Shown: piece by piece, positions 6,090 through 42,418 of the stretch | Position numbering within the stretch: the first letter of the stretch is position 1 | Layout of the letters: every line of letters starts with the position of its first letter | NCBI GenBank assembly: GCA_024638165.1 | Contig: JAHEKV010000003.1 | Coordinates: 1-64,000, forward strand | Reading direction: 5' to 3' | Length of the DNA: 64,000 bases | From: Flavobacteriaceae bacterium | Lineage (GTDB): Bacteria; Bacteroidota; Bacteroidia; Flavobacteriales; Flavobacteriaceae | Notes under the pieces: model-generated | The model's database searches: none | The model's input: only the letters and a program-made list of their open reading frames with translations | What the model was told of the DNA's origin: nothing | Position numbers and translations under genes: made by a program

Positions 6090-6980
6090 TTAAGATAGCT
6101 CTTCTGCTTTTTCAGAAACTTTTCTCAGTGGTAGGTTGAGAATCAGGTCAATATATAAATTGATCTTTTTCTTCAATTCTTTTCTGTGAGTGATGAAATC
6201 TAAAAAACCATGCTCCTTTACAAATTCTGCGGTCTGAAAACCTTCTGGTAAATCTTGCCCCGTGGTATCCTTAACGACTCTGGGGCCTGCAAAACCGATT
6301 AGAGCACCAGGCTCAGCAATATTGATATCTCCTAACATCGCATAAGATGCTGTTGTACCTCCAGTAGTAGGATCAGTGCATAGTGAGATGTAAGGTAGTT
6401 TGGCTGCATCAAGTTGAGCTAGCTTTACAGAGGTTTTAGCCATCTGCATTAATGATAAAGCGGCCTCCATCATTCTTGCTCCTCCTGACTTTGATATGAT
6501 CACAAATGGCGCTTTTCTCTTAATTGCAACGTCCACCGCACGCGCAATTTTTTCTCCAACTACACTACCCATTGAGCCTCCGATGAAACTAAAATCCATA
6601 GAAGCGATAACAATCTCGCGTCCTGCAGATAATCCGTAGGCTGTTCTGATCGCATCGTTTAATTTGGTCTTTTTCTTAGCGTCAACCAGGCGATTCTTGT
6701 ATTTCTTAGTGTCCTCAAAATTTAAAGGGTCCTTTGAAGAAAGTTCTTGGTTGAACTCGGTAAATGTGTTGTCATCAAAAAGTAATTCGAAATACTCCTT
6801 ACTTCCAATGCGTACGTGATAATCATCTTCAGGACTTACAAACGCATTTTTAGCTAACTCGTCAGACTCAACTATTTTTCCGGTAGGAGACTTGTACCAA
6901 AGCCCTTTGGGGGTATCTTTTTTCTCCTCCGTAGCGGTTTGAATTCCCTTTTCTGTCCTTTTAAACCAAGCAGATGCCAT
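6090..6980 (-). CDS. accD: Acetyl-CoA carboxylase carboxyltransferase beta subunit
   Basis: With AccA it moves the carboxyl group from biotin to acetyl-CoA to make malonyl-CoA for fatty acid synthesis. The 296-residue protein has the full crotonase-like core ([42 protein letters not shown]). The N-terminal zinc ribbon region is present in length and flanking sequence, but its two CPxC pairs read SPTG (31-34) and SPED (49-52), so all four zinc ligands are absent. From memory, other flavobacterial AccD proteins share this. It lies 15 bases after fbaA and is likely co-transcribed with it. BirA, which attaches the biotin used by this enzyme, is encoded at 54872. Confidence 0.95.
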
Positions 6981-35567: not shown

Positions 35568-36125
35568 ATGGCTATGGCTGCAACATCTAAGGTTCGTGAC
35601 TTAATAGAACATTCGCTTTTAACCGATCGCAAGGTCTTTTTATGGGGAATGGTAGACGATCACAGCGCAAAACACGTAATTGATCGATTGCTTTATCTGG
35701 ATAGTCAAAGTCATGACGAAATTCAGTTGATCATTAATAGCCCTGGGGGTTATGTGACCTCTGGTTTTGCTATTTATGACACCTTGAAAGCGATCAAAAG
35801 CCCTGTCTCAACTGTTTGTTCAGGTTTAGCTGCTTCAATGGGTTCAATTCTATTGTCTGCTGGTGAAAAGGGTCGTCGCTTTATACAGCCTCATGCACGA
35901 GTGATGATTCATCAGCCAAGTGGAGGTGCTCAGGGTCAAGCCTCTTCTATAGAGATACAAGCTCGAGAGATAATAAAAACCAAAGAGATTGGTGCTAGAA
36001 TTCTTGCTGAGAATTGCGATCAACCCATCGAAAAGGTGATGAAAGATTTTGACCGTGATTATTGGATGGATGCTGAAGAATCTACCCAATATGGTATCGT
36101 AGACGGTGTCATTGATACCATCTAA
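35568..36125 (+). CDS. clpP: ATP-dependent Clp protease proteolytic subunit
   Basis: A serine peptidase ring that degrades proteins unfolded by ClpA/X/C. The 185-residue protein has the catalytic triad Ser90 (GLAASMGS), His115 (MIHQPSGG) and Asp164 (DRDYWM). It is shorter than most ClpP and starts without a long propeptide; ATG at 35568 and 35574 are both possible. It stands alone, without a clpX neighbour, so it may be a second ClpP copy. The overlap with the photolyase 3' end is four bases. Confidence 0.92.
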   Translation: MAMAATSKVRDLIEHSLLTDRKVFLWGMVDDHSAKHVIDRLLYLDSQSHDEIQLIINSPGGYVTSGFAIYDTLKAIKSPVSTVCSGLAASMGSILLSAGEKGRRFIQPHARVMIHQPSGGAQGQASSIEIQAREIIKTKEIGARILAENCDQPIEKVMKDFDRDYWMDAEESTQYGIVDGVIDTI

Positions 36126-37669
36126 AAGGCATCTGGATTTCGAATAATCGCTTCTGCTCTCCTAATCTGTGCTTCTAACTCGTCTGGGTTCTTCTTGTCA
36201 AGTAAGCGATACATCATACCCATTCTAGGATTGTCTTTTAGGGTCTCTCGTTTCTTACTAAGGAAGTTCCAGTACAAGGAATTAAACGGACAAGATTGTT
36301 CTCCAGTTTTATCTTGTACCCGGTAACTACAGCTTTTACAGTAATTACTCATCTTGTTGATGTAGGCTCCACTGCTGATATAAGGTTTGGTCGCAATGAT
36401 TCCTCCGTCAGCGAATTGCGACATTCCACGAGTATTAGTGATCTCCACCCAGTGTATCGCATCGATATAAACCCCCAAATACCAATCATCTAATTGATCA
36501 GGATCTATTTCAGTGAGCAGTGCGTAGTTACCTGTAACCATTAGGCGCTGTATGTGATGGGCATAGCTATGTTCTAGCGTTTGTTTAATAGACTCAGAAA
36601 GACACTTCATCTTGGTTTTTGAGGTCCAATAAAAGTCTGGGAGGTCTTGCTTGTGATTGAAGTAATTGAGCGTTTGATAATTGGGCATTTCTTTCCAGTA
36701 AATACCTCGCATATATTCTCGCCACCCTAAAATTTGACGAACGAAGCCCTCAATTTGTGAAAGCGAAATAGTATCGTCTTTATAATAAGTAGCGATAGCA
36801 GTATCAATAACTTCTCTCGGATGTATCAGTTTGGAATTCAGTGCAAAGGATAGCCTTGAGTGAAAGAGATACGGTTTTCCGACGGCCATGGCATCTTGAT
36901 AGGTGCCGAACCTTGATAATAAATGATCGCAGAAGTACTGTAGTATTTGCAATCCCTCTTTTCGACTGGTTGGCCAAGGGAACTCCTCACTATGGATTAC
37001 ACCTAGCGTTTTAATCTTACTTTCAAGTATATCGTGATAAACCTCGGTGACGTCAGTTTTAAAATCTAACTCTTTTGGAATTTGGAGATTCGTATCAATA
37101 CCTTTTCGATTTTCACTGTCGTAGTTCCATTTACCTCCTTCAGGCTTACCGTTAGGAAGCATTAATATATGATGCTTTTTACGCATCATTCGATAAAACG
37201 ACTCCATCAGGAGCTGTTTCTTGCCTTCGAAGTGTTTTGATAATTCTTCTCGAGAAGTTAGAAAGTGTTCGGTGTCAAAGGCTTCGCTTTGAATTCCCCT
37301 AGATTCAAGCAGGCTACAAATTTCTTTGAGCTCTTTATCTAAACGGTAGTTGTCGGGTAATTGGTATTCAAACTTTTCGATGGGGTGGGTTTGGCAGTAT
37401 TCTAATATTCGAGTCTTAAGGCTACGATCTCCAGATTGATTGATCTTTTGATAGTCTATCTGCGCACCAACCTTTTTTAATGCACCTGCGAAATTTCGCA
37501 TGCTCTGAAAGAAAGCTGTCACCTTCTGTATATGGTGGGTGATATTATTGCTTTCTTGATACATCTCGGCCATACAATAGAGCGTATGAGTATCGACCTC
37601 TTTATACCAGCTGTGTCGGGCGTTTAATTGGTCGCCTAAGATCAATCGGAGCCTTTTTATTGTAGCCAT
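36122..37669 (-). CDS. Iron-sulfur (6-4)-type photolyase (FeS-BCP/PhrB)
   Basis: A 515-residue protein of the cryptochrome/photolyase superfamily, FeS-BCP class, which uses blue light, FAD and a [4Fe-4S] cluster to repair UV lesions. Cys356, Cys444, Cys447 and Cys460 lie six residues behind the four cluster ligands of the class member PhrB (350, 438, 441, 454). The FAD region shows RQILGWREYMRG and GMSQFADGG, and the N-terminus RLILGDQLNARHSW is typical. Its start overlaps the end of the CRY-DASH gene by 13 bases, so they are co-transcribed. Confidence 0.93.
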   Translation of the reverse strand: MATIKRLRLILGDQLNARHSWYKEVDTHTLYCMAEMYQESNNITHHIQKVTAFFQSMRNFAGALKKVGAQIDYQKINQSGDRSLKTRILEYCQTHPIEKFEYQLPDNYRLDKELKEICSLLESRGIQSEAFDTEHFLTSREELSKHFEGKKQLLMESFYRMMRKKHHILMLPNGKPEGGKWNYDSENRKGIDTNLQIPKELDFKTDVTEVYHDILESKIKTLGVIHSEEFPWPTSRKEGLQILQYFCDHLLSRFGTYQDAMAVGKPYLFHSRLSFALNSKLIHPREVIDTAIATYYKDDTISLSQIEGFVRQILGWREYMRGIYWKEMPNYQTLNYFNHKQDLPDFYWTSKTKMKCLSESIKQTLEHSYAHHIQRLMVTGNYALLTEIDPDQLDDWYLGVYIDAIHWVEITNTRGMSQFADGGIIATKPYISSGAYINKMSNYCKSCSYRVQDKTGEQSCPFNSLYWNFLSKKRETLKDNPRMGMMYRLLDKKNPDELEAQIRRAEAIIRNPDAF

Positions 37670-38934
37670 AATCGTCTATAGTCGTTATTAGGATCGTACA
37701 TCTCTGCTTGTCTTTGGGTATTAAATTTGCGGTCTCTAGGATCATTACCCACTCCGCTTACATAACACCAATTACCCCAATTGGCCGAGGCATCGTAATC
37801 GATAAGTTGAGCTTCGAAGTACTTTGCTCCCCAAATCCAGTTTTGCTTCAAGTTCTTTGCCCAATAACTAGCTACATTTTGTCTTGCTCGGTTACTGATC
37901 CATCCCGTAGATTTTAATTCCATCATGGCCGCATTGACGAAATCATCTTTGGTCTTCCCATCGATCCACTTTTCAAAAAGGGTGTTGTTCTCTCCCCACT
38001 CATAGGAGCGATTAAGAATTCCTTCAATCTTAAAGATGCGATCCTTGTGTTTGAAACTAATCAGCTTAAAATATTCTCTCCATAGCAGTTCGAAGAAGAG
38101 CCAATAGGTATCCTGATTCGCAACTACCGACGATTCAAATTCTTTTATCTCTGTATAAATAGATCGGGGAGAAAGACATCCGAAAGCTAAAAATGCTGAA
38201 AGCTTCGAACTAAAGTCTAAGCCAATCAATCCGTTTCTTGTCTGTTTGTATTTAGCGAGGGCCTCAGTTTGCCAGAAATAATGATCTAACCGCTCCCAAG
38301 CGGAGTCTTCTCCACCTTTAAAGGGATGTGCAGATCGATTATCAATGGTGTTATTTGAATAACCTAGTTTAGTTAAGGAAGGAATTTTGCTTGATTCCAT
38401 CGATAAGCAATTGGATAAAGGATTTTCTGGCGCATCAAATGAGGTCTCAGGAGTATGGTATCGTTCTACCTTTTTTCTAAACACCGTAAAGACTTCTGGT
38501 AACTCCATGACATCGAACGGTAATTTCTGTAAAGGGTATAGTAGGTCTGAGTGGTCTTTGATCCATGTTACCTCGTTCTTTGCCTTTTTGATGGCCTTAT
38601 CGATGAATCGCCGCTCGTTAGAGGTAGCAAAATCAATACTGTATAAGGATTCGATCGAATAGCGATCTATAAGTGTGGCAAGATGATCAGACCCTACCTG
38701 ATCGATAATTAAAGGAATATTTAAGCGTTCTAGGTCAGCCTTGAGATTATGGAGTGATTCAAGTTCAAATTTTCTTGCAAAGTAGGATTTGTTAGGAAAC
38801 GTCTTTGAGCCTATTTCAATCGATTGACGATCTAAAAAATAGTAAGCAAATAGACCTTTGTTTTTCATTGCCTTGATGAGCAATGGATTATCCTTAATCC
38901 TTAATAATTGATTGACGATCAGTATACTATTCAT
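37657..38934 (-). CDS. Cryptochrome DASH
   Basis: A 425-residue photolyase-family flavoprotein of the DASH type, repairing cyclobutane dimers in single-stranded DNA. The start at MNSILIVNQLLR is preferred over a longer frame (to 38958). The C-terminal FAD domain has WLFFELLWREYFKLIS, TGWISNRARQNVASY and the DASH-type tail DYDASANWGNWCYVSGVGNDPR. The N-terminal antenna domain is Rossmann-like. The downstream gene is an iron-sulfur photolyase and the upstream one a DUF2256 protein. Confidence 0.94.
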   Translation of the reverse strand: MNSILIVNQLLRIKDNPLLIKAMKNKGLFAYYFLDRQSIEIGSKTFPNKSYFARKFELESLHNLKADLERLNIPLIIDQVGSDHLATLIDRYSIESLYSIDFATSNERRFIDKAIKKAKNEVTWIKDHSDLLYPLQKLPFDVMELPEVFTVFRKKVERYHTPETSFDAPENPLSNCLSMESSKIPSLTKLGYSNNTIDNRSAHPFKGGEDSAWERLDHYFWQTEALAKYKQTRNGLIGLDFSSKLSAFLAFGCLSPRSIYTEIKEFESSVVANQDTYWLFFELLWREYFKLISFKHKDRIFKIEGILNRSYEWGENNTLFEKWIDGKTKDDFVNAAMMELKSTGWISNRARQNVASYWAKNLKQNWIWGAKYFEAQLIDYDASANWGNWCYVSGVGNDPRDRKFNTQRQAEMYDPNNDYRRLWLQ

Positions 38935-38938
38935 TGAA

Positions 38939-39076
38939 CTATTTCTTTTGTGATGCACATTTTTTACTACAGTATTTTACCTGTTCCCAATTCTTATCCC
39001 ATTTTTTACGCCAGGTAAAGGGGCGGCCACAGACCACGCAAATTTTTTGAGGAAGGTTTACTTTCTTGTGTGCCAA
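38939..39076 (-). CDS. DUF2256 small zinc-ribbon-like protein
   Basis: A 45-residue protein, absent from ordinary gene finding because of its size. The reading frame begins [18 protein letters not shown] and ends in [12 protein letters not shown], with the four cysteines (CVVC, CSKKC) and the WRKKW centre of DUF2256. The start codon is TTG, immediately after the in-frame TAA of the flavin reductase gene, and no ATG or other plausible start exists. It ends four bases before the CRY-DASH ATG. From memory, DUF2256 genes are often beside cryptochrome genes. Its function is unknown. Confidence 0.88.
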
Positions 39077-39721
39077 TTATTCAAGAATAGATTTGGGGGT
39101 TCTATCGGGTTGGGCGTAACTGTATCGATCGATAAGTGATACTTTATAATAGGCATCTAGCCCACCAATCGAAGCAGACATTGCTTTCTCGTGATTTAAC
39201 CAATGCGCCCCGTCAATACTATCAGAATTTACCCAGAAACGTTCAATGGTTGCTGTGAGTAGTATGCAATCATTTTCAAGTAGATGCTCTCTGCTATAAG
39301 CACAGAGTAGCTGAATATTACTTTCCTTTACAAAAGGCACAATGCATCCTTCTCGATGAAGGGATTCAATATTGCAATATTCAAACTCAGATTGCTGGTC
39401 CTCAAATTTTGCTGAGGTATGATGCGCATTGGCAGACATCGTTTCAGTAATCTGATTGATGCTGAAATATTTAATCTCTTTGATGTTATTGTAGGTATGA
39501 CGCTCCACGGTTAGTGGACGAAATATCATACCTAAAAGAGGAGGGTTGCTTCCTAAATGGATTACCGAATTAAATACGGCGAGATTGTCTGTAGAACCGT
39601 CTGAGGTGCCAATAAGATTGGCAGATCTCAATCCACAAAGATTATTAATTAGATGGGCCCGTTCTCGATTAGGAATCGATTCTATTTGCGTCGAATCAAA
39701 CTCAATCATTTTGTTTAACAT
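39077..39721 (-). CDS. Flavin reductase family protein
   Basis: A 214-residue FMN-binding split-barrel of the flavin reductase type, with SANLIGTSDG, NLAVFNSVIHLGSNPPLLGMI and NDCILLTATIERFWV. It starts at ATG 39721 or 39709. Its promoter core is at 39741-39748. As first gene of a unit with two photolyases it could reduce flavin for them, but this is an inference; the family also includes other oxidoreductases. Its stop is contiguous with the TTG start of the DUF2256 gene. Confidence 0.85.
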   Translation of the reverse strand: MLNKMIEFDSTQIESIPNRERAHLINNLCGLRSANLIGTSDGSTDNLAVFNSVIHLGSNPPLLGMIFRPLTVERHTYNNIKEIKYFSINQITETMSANAHHTSAKFEDQQSEFEYCNIESLHREGCIVPFVKESNIQLLCAYSREHLLENDCILLTATIERFWVNSDSIDGAHWLNHEKAMSASIGGLDAYYKVSLIDRYSYAQPDRTPKSILE

Positions 39722-39740
39722 TACTTCTATTGATGTTAAA

Positions 39741-39748
39741 CAAAAATA
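39741..39748 (-). promoter_or_regulatory. Promoter core (-7 box) of the photolyase unit
   Basis: The minus strand reads TATTTTTG, an exact TAnnTTTG match, 19 bases before the flavin reductase ATG. It begins three bases after the T-tract of the preceding terminator. Confidence 0.55.
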
Positions 39749-39751
39749 ACT

Positions 39752-39777
39752 AAAAAAGGCGGTCATTAGACCGCCTT
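39752..39777 (-). terminator. Intrinsic terminator after the zinc-ribbon-family gene
   Basis: A perfect nine-pair stem AAGGCGGTC/GACCGCCTT with an ATTA loop (39756-39777), followed on the minus strand by six T. Confidence 0.9.
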
Positions 39778-39816: not shown

Positions 39817-40599
39817 TTAGCTTAATTTATCGAAAAGAGATTGCATTTTCTCAGTCTCTTCTTCAGCTAAAACAGGATCTACTAGAATTCTTCCACTGTG
39901 TTCGTCAGTGGTGATACGCTTACGTGAAGCGATTTCAACTTGAACCTGAGGTGGAAGTGTGAAGAAAGAACCTCCAGAAGCGCCTCTGTGAATAGGAACT
40001 ACTGCCAGACCATTTTTCACTGAACTTCTGATACGCTTGTACGCAGTAAATAGTCGCTCTTCGATGTCTGTACCGTATTTTTCTGAAAGTTTGATTAGCT
40101 CTTTTTCTTCTTTCTCAGTCTCAGCAAGGATGTTTTGAAGTTCACCTTTCTTGTGCTCTAGGTGCTCTTCTCTTCCGTTCAGCTTTTCGGTAGTTTGCTC
40201 GATACTCTCATTCTTGTGCTCAATTTTTACTTTGAATTCACGAATGTGTTTTTCAGCAAGTTGAATTTCTAATTCTTGAAATTCAATTTCTTTCGTTAAT
40301 GAATTGAACTCTCTGCTGTTTCGAACGTTTTTCTGTTGTTCGGCGTATTTCTTCATAAGAGCCTTAGCTTCTTCAATCGAATTTTTCTTCGTTGCGATTT
40401 CAGAATTTAAGGTGCTAATGTCTTCTTGAAGTTTTGCAAGTCGAGTGCTTAAACCAGCAACTTCATCTTCAAGGTCTTCAACTTCCATCGGAAGTTCTCC
40501 TCTTAGATTTTTAATTTCATCAATTCTTGAGTCGATAAGTTGCAAATCGTAAAGAGCTCTTAGCTTGTCTTCTACGCTCATTTCTTTATTCTTCGCCAT
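39817..40599 (-). CDS. Coiled-coil protein of the C4 zinc-ribbon (zf-RING_7) family, ligands lost
   Basis: A 260-residue cytoplasmic protein. Residues 7-185 form a long coiled coil of alternating helices (LRALYDLQLIDSRIDEI, QQKNVRNSREFNSLTKEIEF). The C-terminus is the usual C4 ribbon in sequence and length, but its cysteine pairs read SGGS (208-211) and DEHS (232-235); all four ligands are gone while the PPQVQVEIASRK core between them is kept. From memory, other flavobacterial homologues are the same. The function of the family is not settled. Its start overlaps the Nif3-like gene by 14 bases. Confidence 0.9.
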   Translation of the reverse strand: MAKNKEMSVEDKLRALYDLQLIDSRIDEIKNLRGELPMEVEDLEDEVAGLSTRLAKLQEDISTLNSEIATKKNSIEEAKALMKKYAEQQKNVRNSREFNSLTKEIEFQELEIQLAEKHIREFKVKIEHKNESIEQTTEKLNGREEHLEHKKGELQNILAETEKEEKELIKLSEKYGTDIEERLFTAYKRIRSSVKNGLAVVPIHRGASGGSFFTLPPQVQVEIASRKRITTDEHSGRILVDPVLAEEETEKMQSLFDKLS

Positions 40600-41377
40600 A
40601 CGGATAGTACCCTACAGGGTTAGTATTTATTTCAGATAAATTGACGGCAAAATTACTAAATTTTTCTTGAAGGTATTTAGCAATTGCGTTTTTTGTAAAT
40701 CGCTCAGATTCAAAGTGTCCGACATCGGCGAGCAGGAGCTCTCCTTGGGGTTTGAAAAAATCGTGATATTTCAAATCTCCTGTAACGTATGCATCTGCCT
40801 TTTGTCGAAGTGCTTCTTCGATGGCAAATGCGCCACTTCCCCCTAAAACAGCCACTTTACGAATCATGTTGCCCTTGAATTTACTATGTCTAATCACCGG
40901 TGTTCTAAAGGTTTCTTTGACTTTTTTCAAAAATGACTCAGAGTCTATGGCTTCTCTTAAAATTCCGATTCGTCCCATTCCGCATTTATCGTCATCAGGC
41001 AAGAGAAAGGAAACTTCGCTTAGTCCTAACTGAGTTGCCATTAAATCGCTAACACCTCCAATTACTTTATCTAATGCTGTGTGCATCGCATAAATACTAA
41101 TATTATAGGTGATTGCTTTTTGAATGGCCCGTGATACATAGTCGGTTTGATCGATACGTTTTAACCCATTAAATAGGATTGGGTGGTAACAAACTACCAT
41201 TTCACATTTCTTTTGATGAGCTTCTTCGATGATTTCTTCGAGTGCATCATGACAGACAAGGACTCCACTGATGTCTAAGGTTGTGGATTGATATAGCCAA
41301 CCAACGTTATCGAAATCTTCGGCGCCTGTTAAAGGCGCCCACATTTCGAGTGCATTTGAAATATCGGTGCGTAGCAT
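40586..41377 (-). CDS. Nif3-like dinuclear metal centre protein
   Basis: A 263-residue member of the Nif3/GTP cyclohydrolase 1-like (YbgI) family. Metal-site segments CYHPILFNGLKRI, YAMHTALD and DVGHFESERF are present. Bacteroidota proteins are often near 365 residues with an inserted ferredoxin-like domain; here the insert is missing and the protein is the short form. The start at MLRTDISNAL was chosen over a longer frame to 41422. The catalysed reaction is not known. Translated together with the downstream coiled-coil protein. Confidence 0.87.
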   Translation of the reverse strand: MLRTDISNALEMWAPLTGAEDFDNVGWLYQSTTLDISGVLVCHDALEEIIEEAHQKKCEMVVCYHPILFNGLKRIDQTDYVSRAIQKAITYNISIYAMHTALDKVIGGVSDLMATQLGLSEVSFLLPDDDKCGMGRIGILREAIDSESFLKKVKETFRTPVIRHSKFKGNMIRKVAVLGGSGAFAIEEALRQKADAYVTGDLKYHDFFKPQGELLLADVGHFESERFTKNAIAKYLQEKFSNFAVNLSEINTNPVGYYPYGEE

Positions 41378-41416
41378 AGAAAAGAAATGAGCCACTAATT
41401 TATTATAAATTCGCAT

Positions 41417-42418
41417 ATGCATATTTTGAAACTCGCTCTATCCCCATTTTCATGGCTTTATTCGATAGTGGTCTATTTACGGAATAAGGCTTTTGATTTA
41501 GGGTGGTTCAGTTCTAAGAGGTTTTCGGTTTCAACCTTGGTTGTTGGTAATTTGAGTTTTGGAGGAACCGGTAAAACACCAATGATTCTTTGGTTGATAA
41601 AGGAGGTTTTCAACGCTAACAATGCAGTAGTTCTAAGTCGAGGCTATGGCAGAAAATCAGTGGGTTTTAAGTGGGTGAAAAGGGAATCTATCCCTGAAGA
41701 GGTAGGCGATGAGCCCTTGCAAATTTTCAATGCTTTTGACCAGCTCCCTGTAGCCGTTTGCGAGGATAGAAGCCATGGTATTGAGCGAATTGTAAACGAA
41801 TATTCTCCTGAAGTCATTTTACTTGATGATGCTTTTCAACACCGCAAAGTCAGTGCTAAAGCAAACATTTTACTCACTACCTATTTGAACCCGTTTTATA
41901 ACGATTGTTACTTTCCTAAGGGTAGGTTAAGAGATCATAAGACTCAAGCAAACCGAGCGGATATCATCGTGGTTACTAAATGTCCGGAGGACCTTACCAA
42001 AAAGGAAGCCGAAAGGATTAAAAATCGTGTGAGTAAGTGGTCTTCAGCCTCAGTCTTTTTTGCCTCTTTAAAGTATCCGGCATTAAATGATGAAAGCTTC
42101 ACTTCGCTTAGATCCGCAAAGAATCTATTGATAACCGGAATAGCAGACGCAAGTCCTCTGGAGTCTTATTTGTTAGATCTCGGTATCTCTTTTGATCATT
42201 TGCGATTTAAGGATCATCATGCCTACCAAGCATCTGATTTTTCGAACCTGAATAGTTATGATCAAATACTTACGACTGCTAAGGATAAAGTGAAACTAGA
42301 GGCTGTAATTCCCAATCAATTCATTCAAGTAATCGAGGTGGAACATTCGATTTGCTTTGATCAAAAGGATGAGCTTATCCATTTAATTCTACGAAAGACG
42401 TTTAATGAGATCAATTAG
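41417..42418 (+). CDS. lpxK: Tetraacyldisaccharide 4'-kinase
   Basis: Phosphorylates the lipid A precursor disaccharide at the 4' position, at the inner membrane. The 333-residue protein has an N-terminal hydrophobic segment, the Walker A loop GNLSFGGTGKTP near residue 45, LSRGYGRKS, VGDEPLQI and the LLDDAFQHR pattern. Its 3' end overlaps gap on the other strand by 30 bases. Divergent from the Nif3-like gene, with 39 bases between the start codons. Confidence 0.95.
   Translation: MHILKLALSPFSWLYSIVVYLRNKAFDLGWFSSKRFSVSTLVVGNLSFGGTGKTPMILWLIKEVFNANNAVVLSRGYGRKSVGFKWVKRESIPEEVGDEPLQIFNAFDQLPVAVCEDRSHGIERIVNEYSPEVILLDDAFQHRKVSAKANILLTTYLNPFYNDCYFPKGRLRDHKTQANRADIIVVTKCPEDLTKKEAERIKNRVSKWSSASVFFASLKYPALNDESFTSLRSAKNLLITGIADASPLESYLLDLGISFDHLRFKDHHAYQASDFSNLNSYDQILTTAKDKVKLEAVIPNQFIQVIEVEHSICFDQKDELIHLILRKTFNEIN

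What the first reader, a model, noticed from the sequence alone, without database searches (positions are those of the whole stretch)
39895..39978. A second zinc ribbon, in a different family, with all four cysteines replaced
The C4 ribbon of the coiled-coil protein has SGGS and DEHS where other members have CxxC. The residues between are conserved. Together with AccD this is loss of zinc from two unrelated proteins of one genome, which could reflect adaptation to scarce zinc or to oxidants. DUF2256 in the same window keeps its four cysteines, so the loss is not general.
Basis: partly seen in the sequence, partly recalled or inferred. Interest (0 to 1): 0.6.

Follow-up and report, generated by a model that had tools for sequence, protein, structure and literature searches.

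The report
Zinc-free ribbon protein of flavobacteria
A protein that in most bacteria holds a zinc atom with four cysteines has none of them here; this was already published for flavobacteria, but across the sampled phylum the loss tends to go together with loss of zinc ligands in a fatty-acid enzyme, which I did not find in print.

Summary
The ORF at 39817-40599(-) is a DUF164/COG1579 coiled-coil protein related to HP0958 and CT398. Its ribbon reads SGGS-x20-DEHS instead of two CxxC. That is already in print: PMC3372290 (2011) gives SxxS-x20-DxxS as general in Flavobacteria. The 80 best named loci all lack the four cysteines (76 SSDS, 4 ASDS), and the replacement residues are nearly invariant: a maintained zinc-free ribbon, not decay.

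The AccD link holds better than I expected. Of 83 Bacteroidota genomes scored for both proteins, 44 lack the full set in both, 28 keep both, 11 are mixed. The tree needs 5 changes for DUF164 and 8 for AccD; a dependent-loss model beats independence (p 0.0003), but counting independent pairs is too weak to confirm it.

Present zinc scarcity is not supported as the cause. The loss is old and clade-wide, and ZnuA shows no link. LigA keeps its cysteines; L32 and DksA lost theirs on other patterns. The neighbouring NIF3 has also lost a metal-site histidine. Function is inferred: an RpoN/RNA-polymerase-type adaptor whose ribbon is probably held by hydrogen bonds.

The parts
39817..40599 (-). DUF164/COG1579 coiled-coil protein with zinc-free C-terminal ribbon (260 aa)
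   Evidence: PF02591 29.4 bits, cut-off 29.1; CT398_CC PF24481 21.3 bits, under its cut-off of 27; PDB HP0958 3na7 E 3e-8, CT398 4ilo E 1.7e-7; top Foldseek hits 3na7, 4ilo, then 5y06
39967..39978 (-). first knuckle, SGGS in place of CxxC (residues 208-211)
39895..39906 (-). second knuckle, DEHS in place of CxxC (residues 232-235)
40586..41422 (-). NIF3/DUF34 gene, overlapping the DUF164 gene by 14 bases; usual operon partner
   Evidence: PF01784 241.7 bits; a NIF3 ORF lies beside DUF164 in 79 of 80 named loci; partner ranking from passages of PMC8469502
41183..41188 (-). NIF3 dual-histidine motif reading Tyr-His (CYHP) instead of His-His
   Evidence: the motif is described in passages of PMC8469502
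6090..6980 (-). AccD, carboxyltransferase beta subunit
   Evidence: PF01039 79.7 bits; PDB 2f9y E 1.1e-76
6825..6890 (-). AccD N-terminal ribbon with S, G, S, D in place of four cysteines
38939..39076 (-). DUF2256 small protein that keeps CxxC...CxxxC (control in the same window)

Best explanation
It is a DUF164/COG1579 protein whose C-terminal ribbon has become independent of zinc. SHOWN: the four cysteines are replaced by Ser, Ser, Asp, Ser; the replacements are conserved across Flavobacteriaceae-type genomes and arose once at the base of a Flavobacteriales clade on my tree; an Asp-x-x-Ser second knuckle is reached in five separate places of the phylum tree; degeneration of this ribbon and of the AccD ribbon is statistically associated. 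INFERRED: the ribbon keeps its shape through hydrogen bonds from Asp and Ser, as in the zinc-free adenylate kinase lid; the protein still works as a coiled-coil adaptor of the HP0958/CT398 type, probably for RpoN and RNA polymerase, together with NIF3; and the joint loss with AccD belongs to a gradual removal of structural zinc in this phylum, fixed long ago and not a response of this organism to its present habitat.
For: Homology. Replacement and conservation: (S211, D232 and S235 invariant in 29 rows; DEHSGR invariant in 66 rows). Asp at the third position of a TGY codon needs two base changes, so conservation points to selection (inference). Repeated DxxS: Flavobacteriales, f21, part of f22, f46 G165, and f35/f37/f56/f64. 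A single origin of all degenerate rows is rejected for DUF164 (p-AU 3e-35) and for AccD (7e-58). Association: 83 genomes, 44 both degenerate, 28 both intact, 8 DUF164 only, 3 AccD only; dependent against independent loss p 0.0004 on the quick tree and 0.0003 on the careful tree; p 0.00003 to 0.0026 when any one clade is left out. RpoN is in 59 of 59 relatives searched, including a genome of about 345 kb that also keeps DUF164 and NIF3. Precedent for a lid held by zinc or by hydrogen bonds: passages of PMC4155613. Bacteroidetes carry the C- form of seven of eight listed ribosomal proteins, L32 being +/-: passages of PMC3087516.
Against: AlphaFold gave the ribbon low confidence: segments under pLDDT 50 in the full-length model, mean 53 for the domain alone, so the retained fold and the hydrogen bonds are not shown. 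Foldseek matches rest mainly on the coiled coil (rmsd 10-13 A). In H. pylori FlgZ, C202S and C223S greatly lower RpoN (PMC3372290, abstract and passages), so a serine ribbon may not serve RpoN. RpoN is universal in the relatives searched, so its presence cannot be correlated with the cysteine state. Independent pairs do not reach significance: 7 pairs on supported branches, on average 3.2 the same way, 0 the other way, 3.8 without difference, median p 0.25. The 11 mixed genomes show that neither loss needs the other.
Confidence: 0.6

Rival explanations
1. Adaptation to scarce zinc or to oxidants: the lineage cut its zinc quota because of its habitat.
For: Two ribbons were lost together; L32 and DksA are degenerate as well in this genome; low zinc induces C- ribosomal paralogues in other bacteria (passages of PMC3087516); ZIP transporters are commoner with degenerate AccD (37/39 against 27/36).
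Against: The state is shared by every one of the 80 named loci fetched, whose titles name Flavobacterium, Tenacibaculum, Polaribacter, Arenibacter and others that, from recall, span soil, fresh water and sea. ZnuA does not differ (14/39 against 15/36). LigA and DUF2256 keep their cysteines.
Confidence: 0.2
2. Functional link: the NIF3-DUF164 pair helps to load metal into AccD and other zinc ribbons; once DUF164 gave up zinc, AccD was driven to become zinc-free.
For: In the model the AccD loss rate depends on DUF164 (0.043 intact, 1.071 degenerate, LR 14.4) more strongly than the reverse (LR 7.1). NIF3 has been proposed as a metal insertase (passages of PMC8469502), and its first histidine is Phe or Tyr in 31 of 45 scored genomes with degenerate DUF164 against 4 of 26 with intact DUF164.
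Against: Eight genomes keep a C4 AccD with degenerate DUF164, and three the reverse. DUF164 is absent from Alpha-, Beta- and Gammaproteobacteria (PMC3372290), of which E. coli has a zinc AccD (recalled). The NIF3 histidine changed only about twice on the tree (58 rows), so its association rests on few events.
Confidence: 0.12
3. Coincidence: each loss is neutral, fixed on a few deep branches, and the association comes from a handful of clades.
For: Only 5 and 8 changes on the tree; the independent-pairs test is not significant; the genomes were not drawn at random with respect to DUF164 (one search took 30 low scorers).
Against: Leave-one-clade-out keeps p at or below 0.0026; on the same 27 genomes L32 shows no association with AccD (p 0.53) or DUF164 (p 0.57) while the pair does (p 0.0001) (those 27 were picked with the two states known).
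Confidence: 0.3

Closest known systems
DUF164 of Flavobacteria as described by Pereira et al. 2011 (PMC3372290)
   Same: Same family and same motif, SxxS-x20-DxxS; the paper also says many Bacteroidetes and Actinobacteria members lack cysteines (abstract and passages).
   Different: In the passages I saw, AccD is not mentioned and the number of separate losses is not given.
HP0958/FlgZ (3na7), CT398/CdsZ (4ilo), MSMEG_4306 (5y05, 5y06)
   Same: Coiled-coil hairpin followed by a C-terminal ribbon; best sequence matches in the PDB are 3na7 and 4ilo, best fold matches 3na7 and 4ilo.
   Different: These have a C4 zinc site (passages of PMC5947703); here it is absent.
Adenylate kinase lid
   Same: The same lid is held either by a metal on four cysteines or by a hydrogen-bond network at matching positions (passages of PMC4155613). 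The E. coli pattern HxxS...DxxT is recalled.
   Different: Unrelated protein; the network is only inferred here.
C- forms of ribosomal proteins (S14, L31, L32, L33, L36, S4 and others)
   Same: Zinc-free variants of zinc-ribbon proteins with repeated origins (passages of PMC3087516).
   Different: Often kept as paralogues regulated by zinc; here a single fixed copy (one match in this genome).

Membership tests
DUF164/COG1579 homology family | Match to PF02591 over the curated cut-off | tested here: met
   29.4 against 29.1 bits; 32.7 bits in the genome search
DUF164/COG1579 homology family | N-terminal coiled-coil hairpin | tested here: met
   Two long helices 9-90 and 95-178 with high confidence; Foldseek 3na7 E 3.3e-6. 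The Pfam model CT398_CC stays under its cut-off (21.3 against 27)
DUF164/COG1579 homology family | NIF3 as neighbour (frequent, not obligatory) | tested here: met
   Window 40586-41422; 79 of 80 named loci
C4-type zinc ribbon | CxxC-x18-26-CxxC | tested here: not met
   SGGS-x20-DEHS. It is therefore a DUF164 homologue but not a C4 zinc-ribbon protein
C4-type zinc ribbon | Bound zinc | not testable with these tools
   needs metal analysis of the protein
C4-type zinc ribbon | Ribbon fold | tested here: inconclusive
   Helix and two short strands are predicted, but with pLDDT around 50 or lower
RpoN chaperone (FlgZ-like function) | RpoN encoded in the same genome | tested here: met
   59 of 59 relatives and the own genome
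RpoN chaperone (FlgZ-like function) | Binds and stabilises RpoN | not testable with these tools
   needs pull-down and knock-out
AccD | Carboxyltransferase beta subunit by homology | tested here: met
   PF01039, 2f9y E 1.1e-76
AccD | Four-cysteine N-terminal ribbon | tested here: not met
   S, G, S, D

The most novel reading that the evidence does not exclude
In Bacteroidota two unrelated structural zinc ribbons, DUF164 and AccD, have become zinc-free in a correlated way several times, with Asp/Ser knuckles repeatedly taking the place of CxxC, and with a metal-site histidine of the DUF164 partner NIF3 lost in the same Flavobacteriales clade: a lineage-level programme of structural zinc removal, perhaps because NIF3-DUF164 takes part in supplying zinc to such ribbons.
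Probability: 0.3. Interest if true: 0.65.

Novelty: already known. Interest (0 to 1): 0.42.

Why it matters
The zinc-free DUF164 ribbon itself is in print. If the association with AccD stands, it turns a curiosity about single proteins into a testable question: why do some bacterial lineages strip structural zinc from several essential proteins, in what order, and what replaces the metal. It also warns against assigning zinc binding by family name in flavobacteria, and offers natural zinc-free ribbons for protein engineering.

Tried and rejected
RpoN as explanation of the cysteine state: rejected as uninformative, RpoN is in 59 of 59 relatives. ZnuA as correlate: no difference. ZIP: weak, uncorrected. 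LigA as a third co-lost ribbon: it keeps its cysteines (26 of 28 read by eye; G216 has an altered spacing, G223 has lost one; G165 and G330 had no match). L32: 27 of 30 could be read, 6 C4 and 21 degenerate, pattern unlike AccD/DUF164. DksA: 29 of 30 genomes matched, several with a second copy, and my extraction failed for G202, so only the own genome's reading (C, T, S, A by eye) is used.

Structure prediction did not settle the ribbon, and I made no fold search with the domain model. A first script for AccD letters used faulty regular expressions and was discarded; one search replaces it. In one search one locus (L218) was unread through a regular-expression miss; one search reads all 80.

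Counting rules: 'degenerate' or 'lost' means not all four cysteines; some rows keep one (for instance A-CT, C-DS, TSSC, ACDS in DUF164; CTFS, TGCD, VTCS in AccD). The 83 genomes are those in which both proteins could be read, out of 116 read for DUF164 and 100 for AccD; the tree used 75 of them, 8 of the same family as the window being left out for speed. Genomes were chosen to span families and, for low DUF164 scores; AccD state was unknown at that point. Families carry codes only, so their names and habitats are unknown to me.

Papers on an AccD-DUF164 joint loss: none found in searches, which cover open-licence PMC papers only.

Full report
What is there. The ORF at 39817-40599 on the minus strand encodes 260 residues. 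It just passes the Pfam C4 zinc-ribbon model (29.4 bits, cut-off 29.1), and its only sequence relatives of note in the PDB are HP0958 of Helicobacter (3na7, E 3e-8) and CT398 of Chlamydia (4ilo, E 1.7e-7). The predicted model has two long helices (9-90, 95-178) and its best fold matches are again 3na7 and 4ilo, then 5y06 at E 0.005; these matches rest mainly on the coiled coil. Relatives in the same order with an intact site read ACGGC...CEHCGRI in the same columns.

It is already in print. Pereira and co-workers (PMC3372290; abstract and passages) state that DUF164 proteins from Flavobacteria generally have SxxS-x20-DxxS in place of the two CxxC motifs, and that 43 of 349 family members lack one or more cysteines, mostly in Actinobacteria and Bacteroidetes. 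In H. pylori, C202S and C223S lower RpoN strongly.

It is not decay. The 80 named loci kept (the best 80 of 585 relatives found, so biased to near relatives) read SSDS in 76 cases and ASDS in 4. Over 29 aligned sequences the ribbon is better conserved than the coiled coil (0.92 against 0.77), and S211, D232 and S235 are invariant, S208 28 of 29; DEHSGR is invariant in 66 rows. The domain was found in 57 of 59 relatives and 293 of 296 genomes of the phylum sample. A genome of about 345 kb keeps DUF164 (letters A, S, D, S), NIF3 and RpoN.

When it was lost. A tree of 75 genomes from AccD, DUF164 and NIF3 without the trait columns puts a single DUF164 loss below the split of families f7, f14 and the f1-f5, f10, f12 group from families f6, f8, f11, f13 and f15, which keep C4. 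The branch that unites the whole clade of losers has support 78/96 or better. Family f14 (G048) reads T, S, S, C, an intermediate-looking state. Other degenerate states stand elsewhere on the tree: f21 (SSDS), part of f22 (ACDS) next to C4 members of the same family, f46 G165 (C-DS) next to C4 G216, f35/f37/f56/f64 (C-DS or A-DS), and a group f27-f58 that keeps the third cysteine (A-CT, A-CS). The fewest changes are 5. Holding all degenerate rows as one clade is rejected. An Asp-x-x-Ser second knuckle thus appears in five places of the tree.

The AccD link. The AccD ribbon was read in 100 genomes and DUF164 in 116; 83 have both. Both degenerate 44, both intact 28, only DUF164 degenerate 8 (f7 twice, f21, f27, f32, f43, f51, f53), only AccD degenerate 3 (f22: G133, G249, G328). 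By family and state: 20 intact/intact, 16 degenerate/degenerate, 7 DUF164 only, 1 AccD only, with f22 and f46 counted in two classes each. AccD needs 8 changes on the careful tree (9 on the quick one). In a two-trait loss model, dependence beats independence: LR 15.7, p 0.0004 on the quick tree, LR 16.1, p 0.0003 on the careful tree; when one clade at a time is left out p ranges from 0.00003 to 0.0026. The AccD loss rate is 0.043 with intact and 1.07 with degenerate DUF164. Caution: such models can be moved by few events (from recall), and the test on independent pairs has 7 pairs, 3.2 on average the same way and none the other way, median p 0.25. I take the association as likely but not proven.

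Is it zinc economy? The own genome also has a degenerate L32 and a degenerate DksA/TraR protein, but its LigA ribbon and DUF2256 are intact. In the panel of 30, LigA keeps four cysteines in 17 of 17 AccD-degenerate genomes read (one of 18 had no match). L32 is C4 in 6 and degenerate in 21 of 27 read, and shows no association with AccD or DUF164 on these genomes (p 0.53 and 0.57), while DUF164 and AccD do on the same 27 (p 0.0001; the 27 were picked with these two states known). ZnuA: 14 of 39 against 15 of 36; ZIP: 37 of 39 against 27 of 36. Published tables give Bacteroidetes the C- form of seven of eight ribosomal proteins and both forms of L32 (passages of PMC3087516). So zinc ligands have gone from several families of this phylum at different times, and DUF164 and AccD are a pair that tends to go together. 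A present shortage of zinc is not needed to explain it and is not supported by importer content.

A third metal site. The gene before DUF164 is NIF3/DUF34, a frequent partner for which a metal chaperone or insertase role was proposed. Its dual-histidine motif reads FHP in 72, HHP in 5 of the 80 named loci, with 2 cut and 1 absent; the five are two MAGs titled Flavobacteriales and three titled Cryomorphaceae. In the unnamed panel it is Phe or Tyr in 31 of 45 scored genomes with degenerate DUF164 and 4 of 26 with intact DUF164, but with only two changes on the tree. The first histidine is Tyr in eukaryotes as well (passage of PMC8469502).

Mechanism. Most likely the ribbon keeps its turn geometry by hydrogen bonds from Asp and Ser, as the adenylate kinase lid does in its zinc-free form (passages of PMC4155613), and the protein acts as a coiled-coil adaptor, probably of RpoN and RNA polymerase, with NIF3. 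The hydrogen bonds, the retained fold (low confidence) and the partner are inferred.

Verdict.

Noticed in passing
window 40586-41422(-): NIF3 is short here and in its genus (about 264-289 aa, also in L200) against about 365-398 aa in most other complete Flavobacteriaceae copies, so the inserted domain seems to be missing; the dual-histidine motif reads YHP or FHP.
   Followed up: partly
G000 C21:15271-15438 and C21:181792-181878 (loci L352, L403): Ribosomal L32 and a DksA/TraR protein of this genome also have degenerate zinc ribbons.
   Followed up: partly
G050, loci L156: A genome of about 345 kb keeps RpoN, NIF3 and DUF164 (degenerate) together, which hints that they act together.
   Followed up: no
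G133, G249, G328 (family f22; loci L262, L263, L266): AccD reads T, G, C, D while DUF164 is still C4: the only cases seen of AccD degenerate with DUF164 intact.
   Followed up: partly
window 36122-39766(-): Two photolyase/cryptochrome-like genes, a DUF2256-type small protein and a flavin-reductase-like gene stand in a row behind DUF164; the photolyase names are from recall, the flavin reductase.
   Followed up: no
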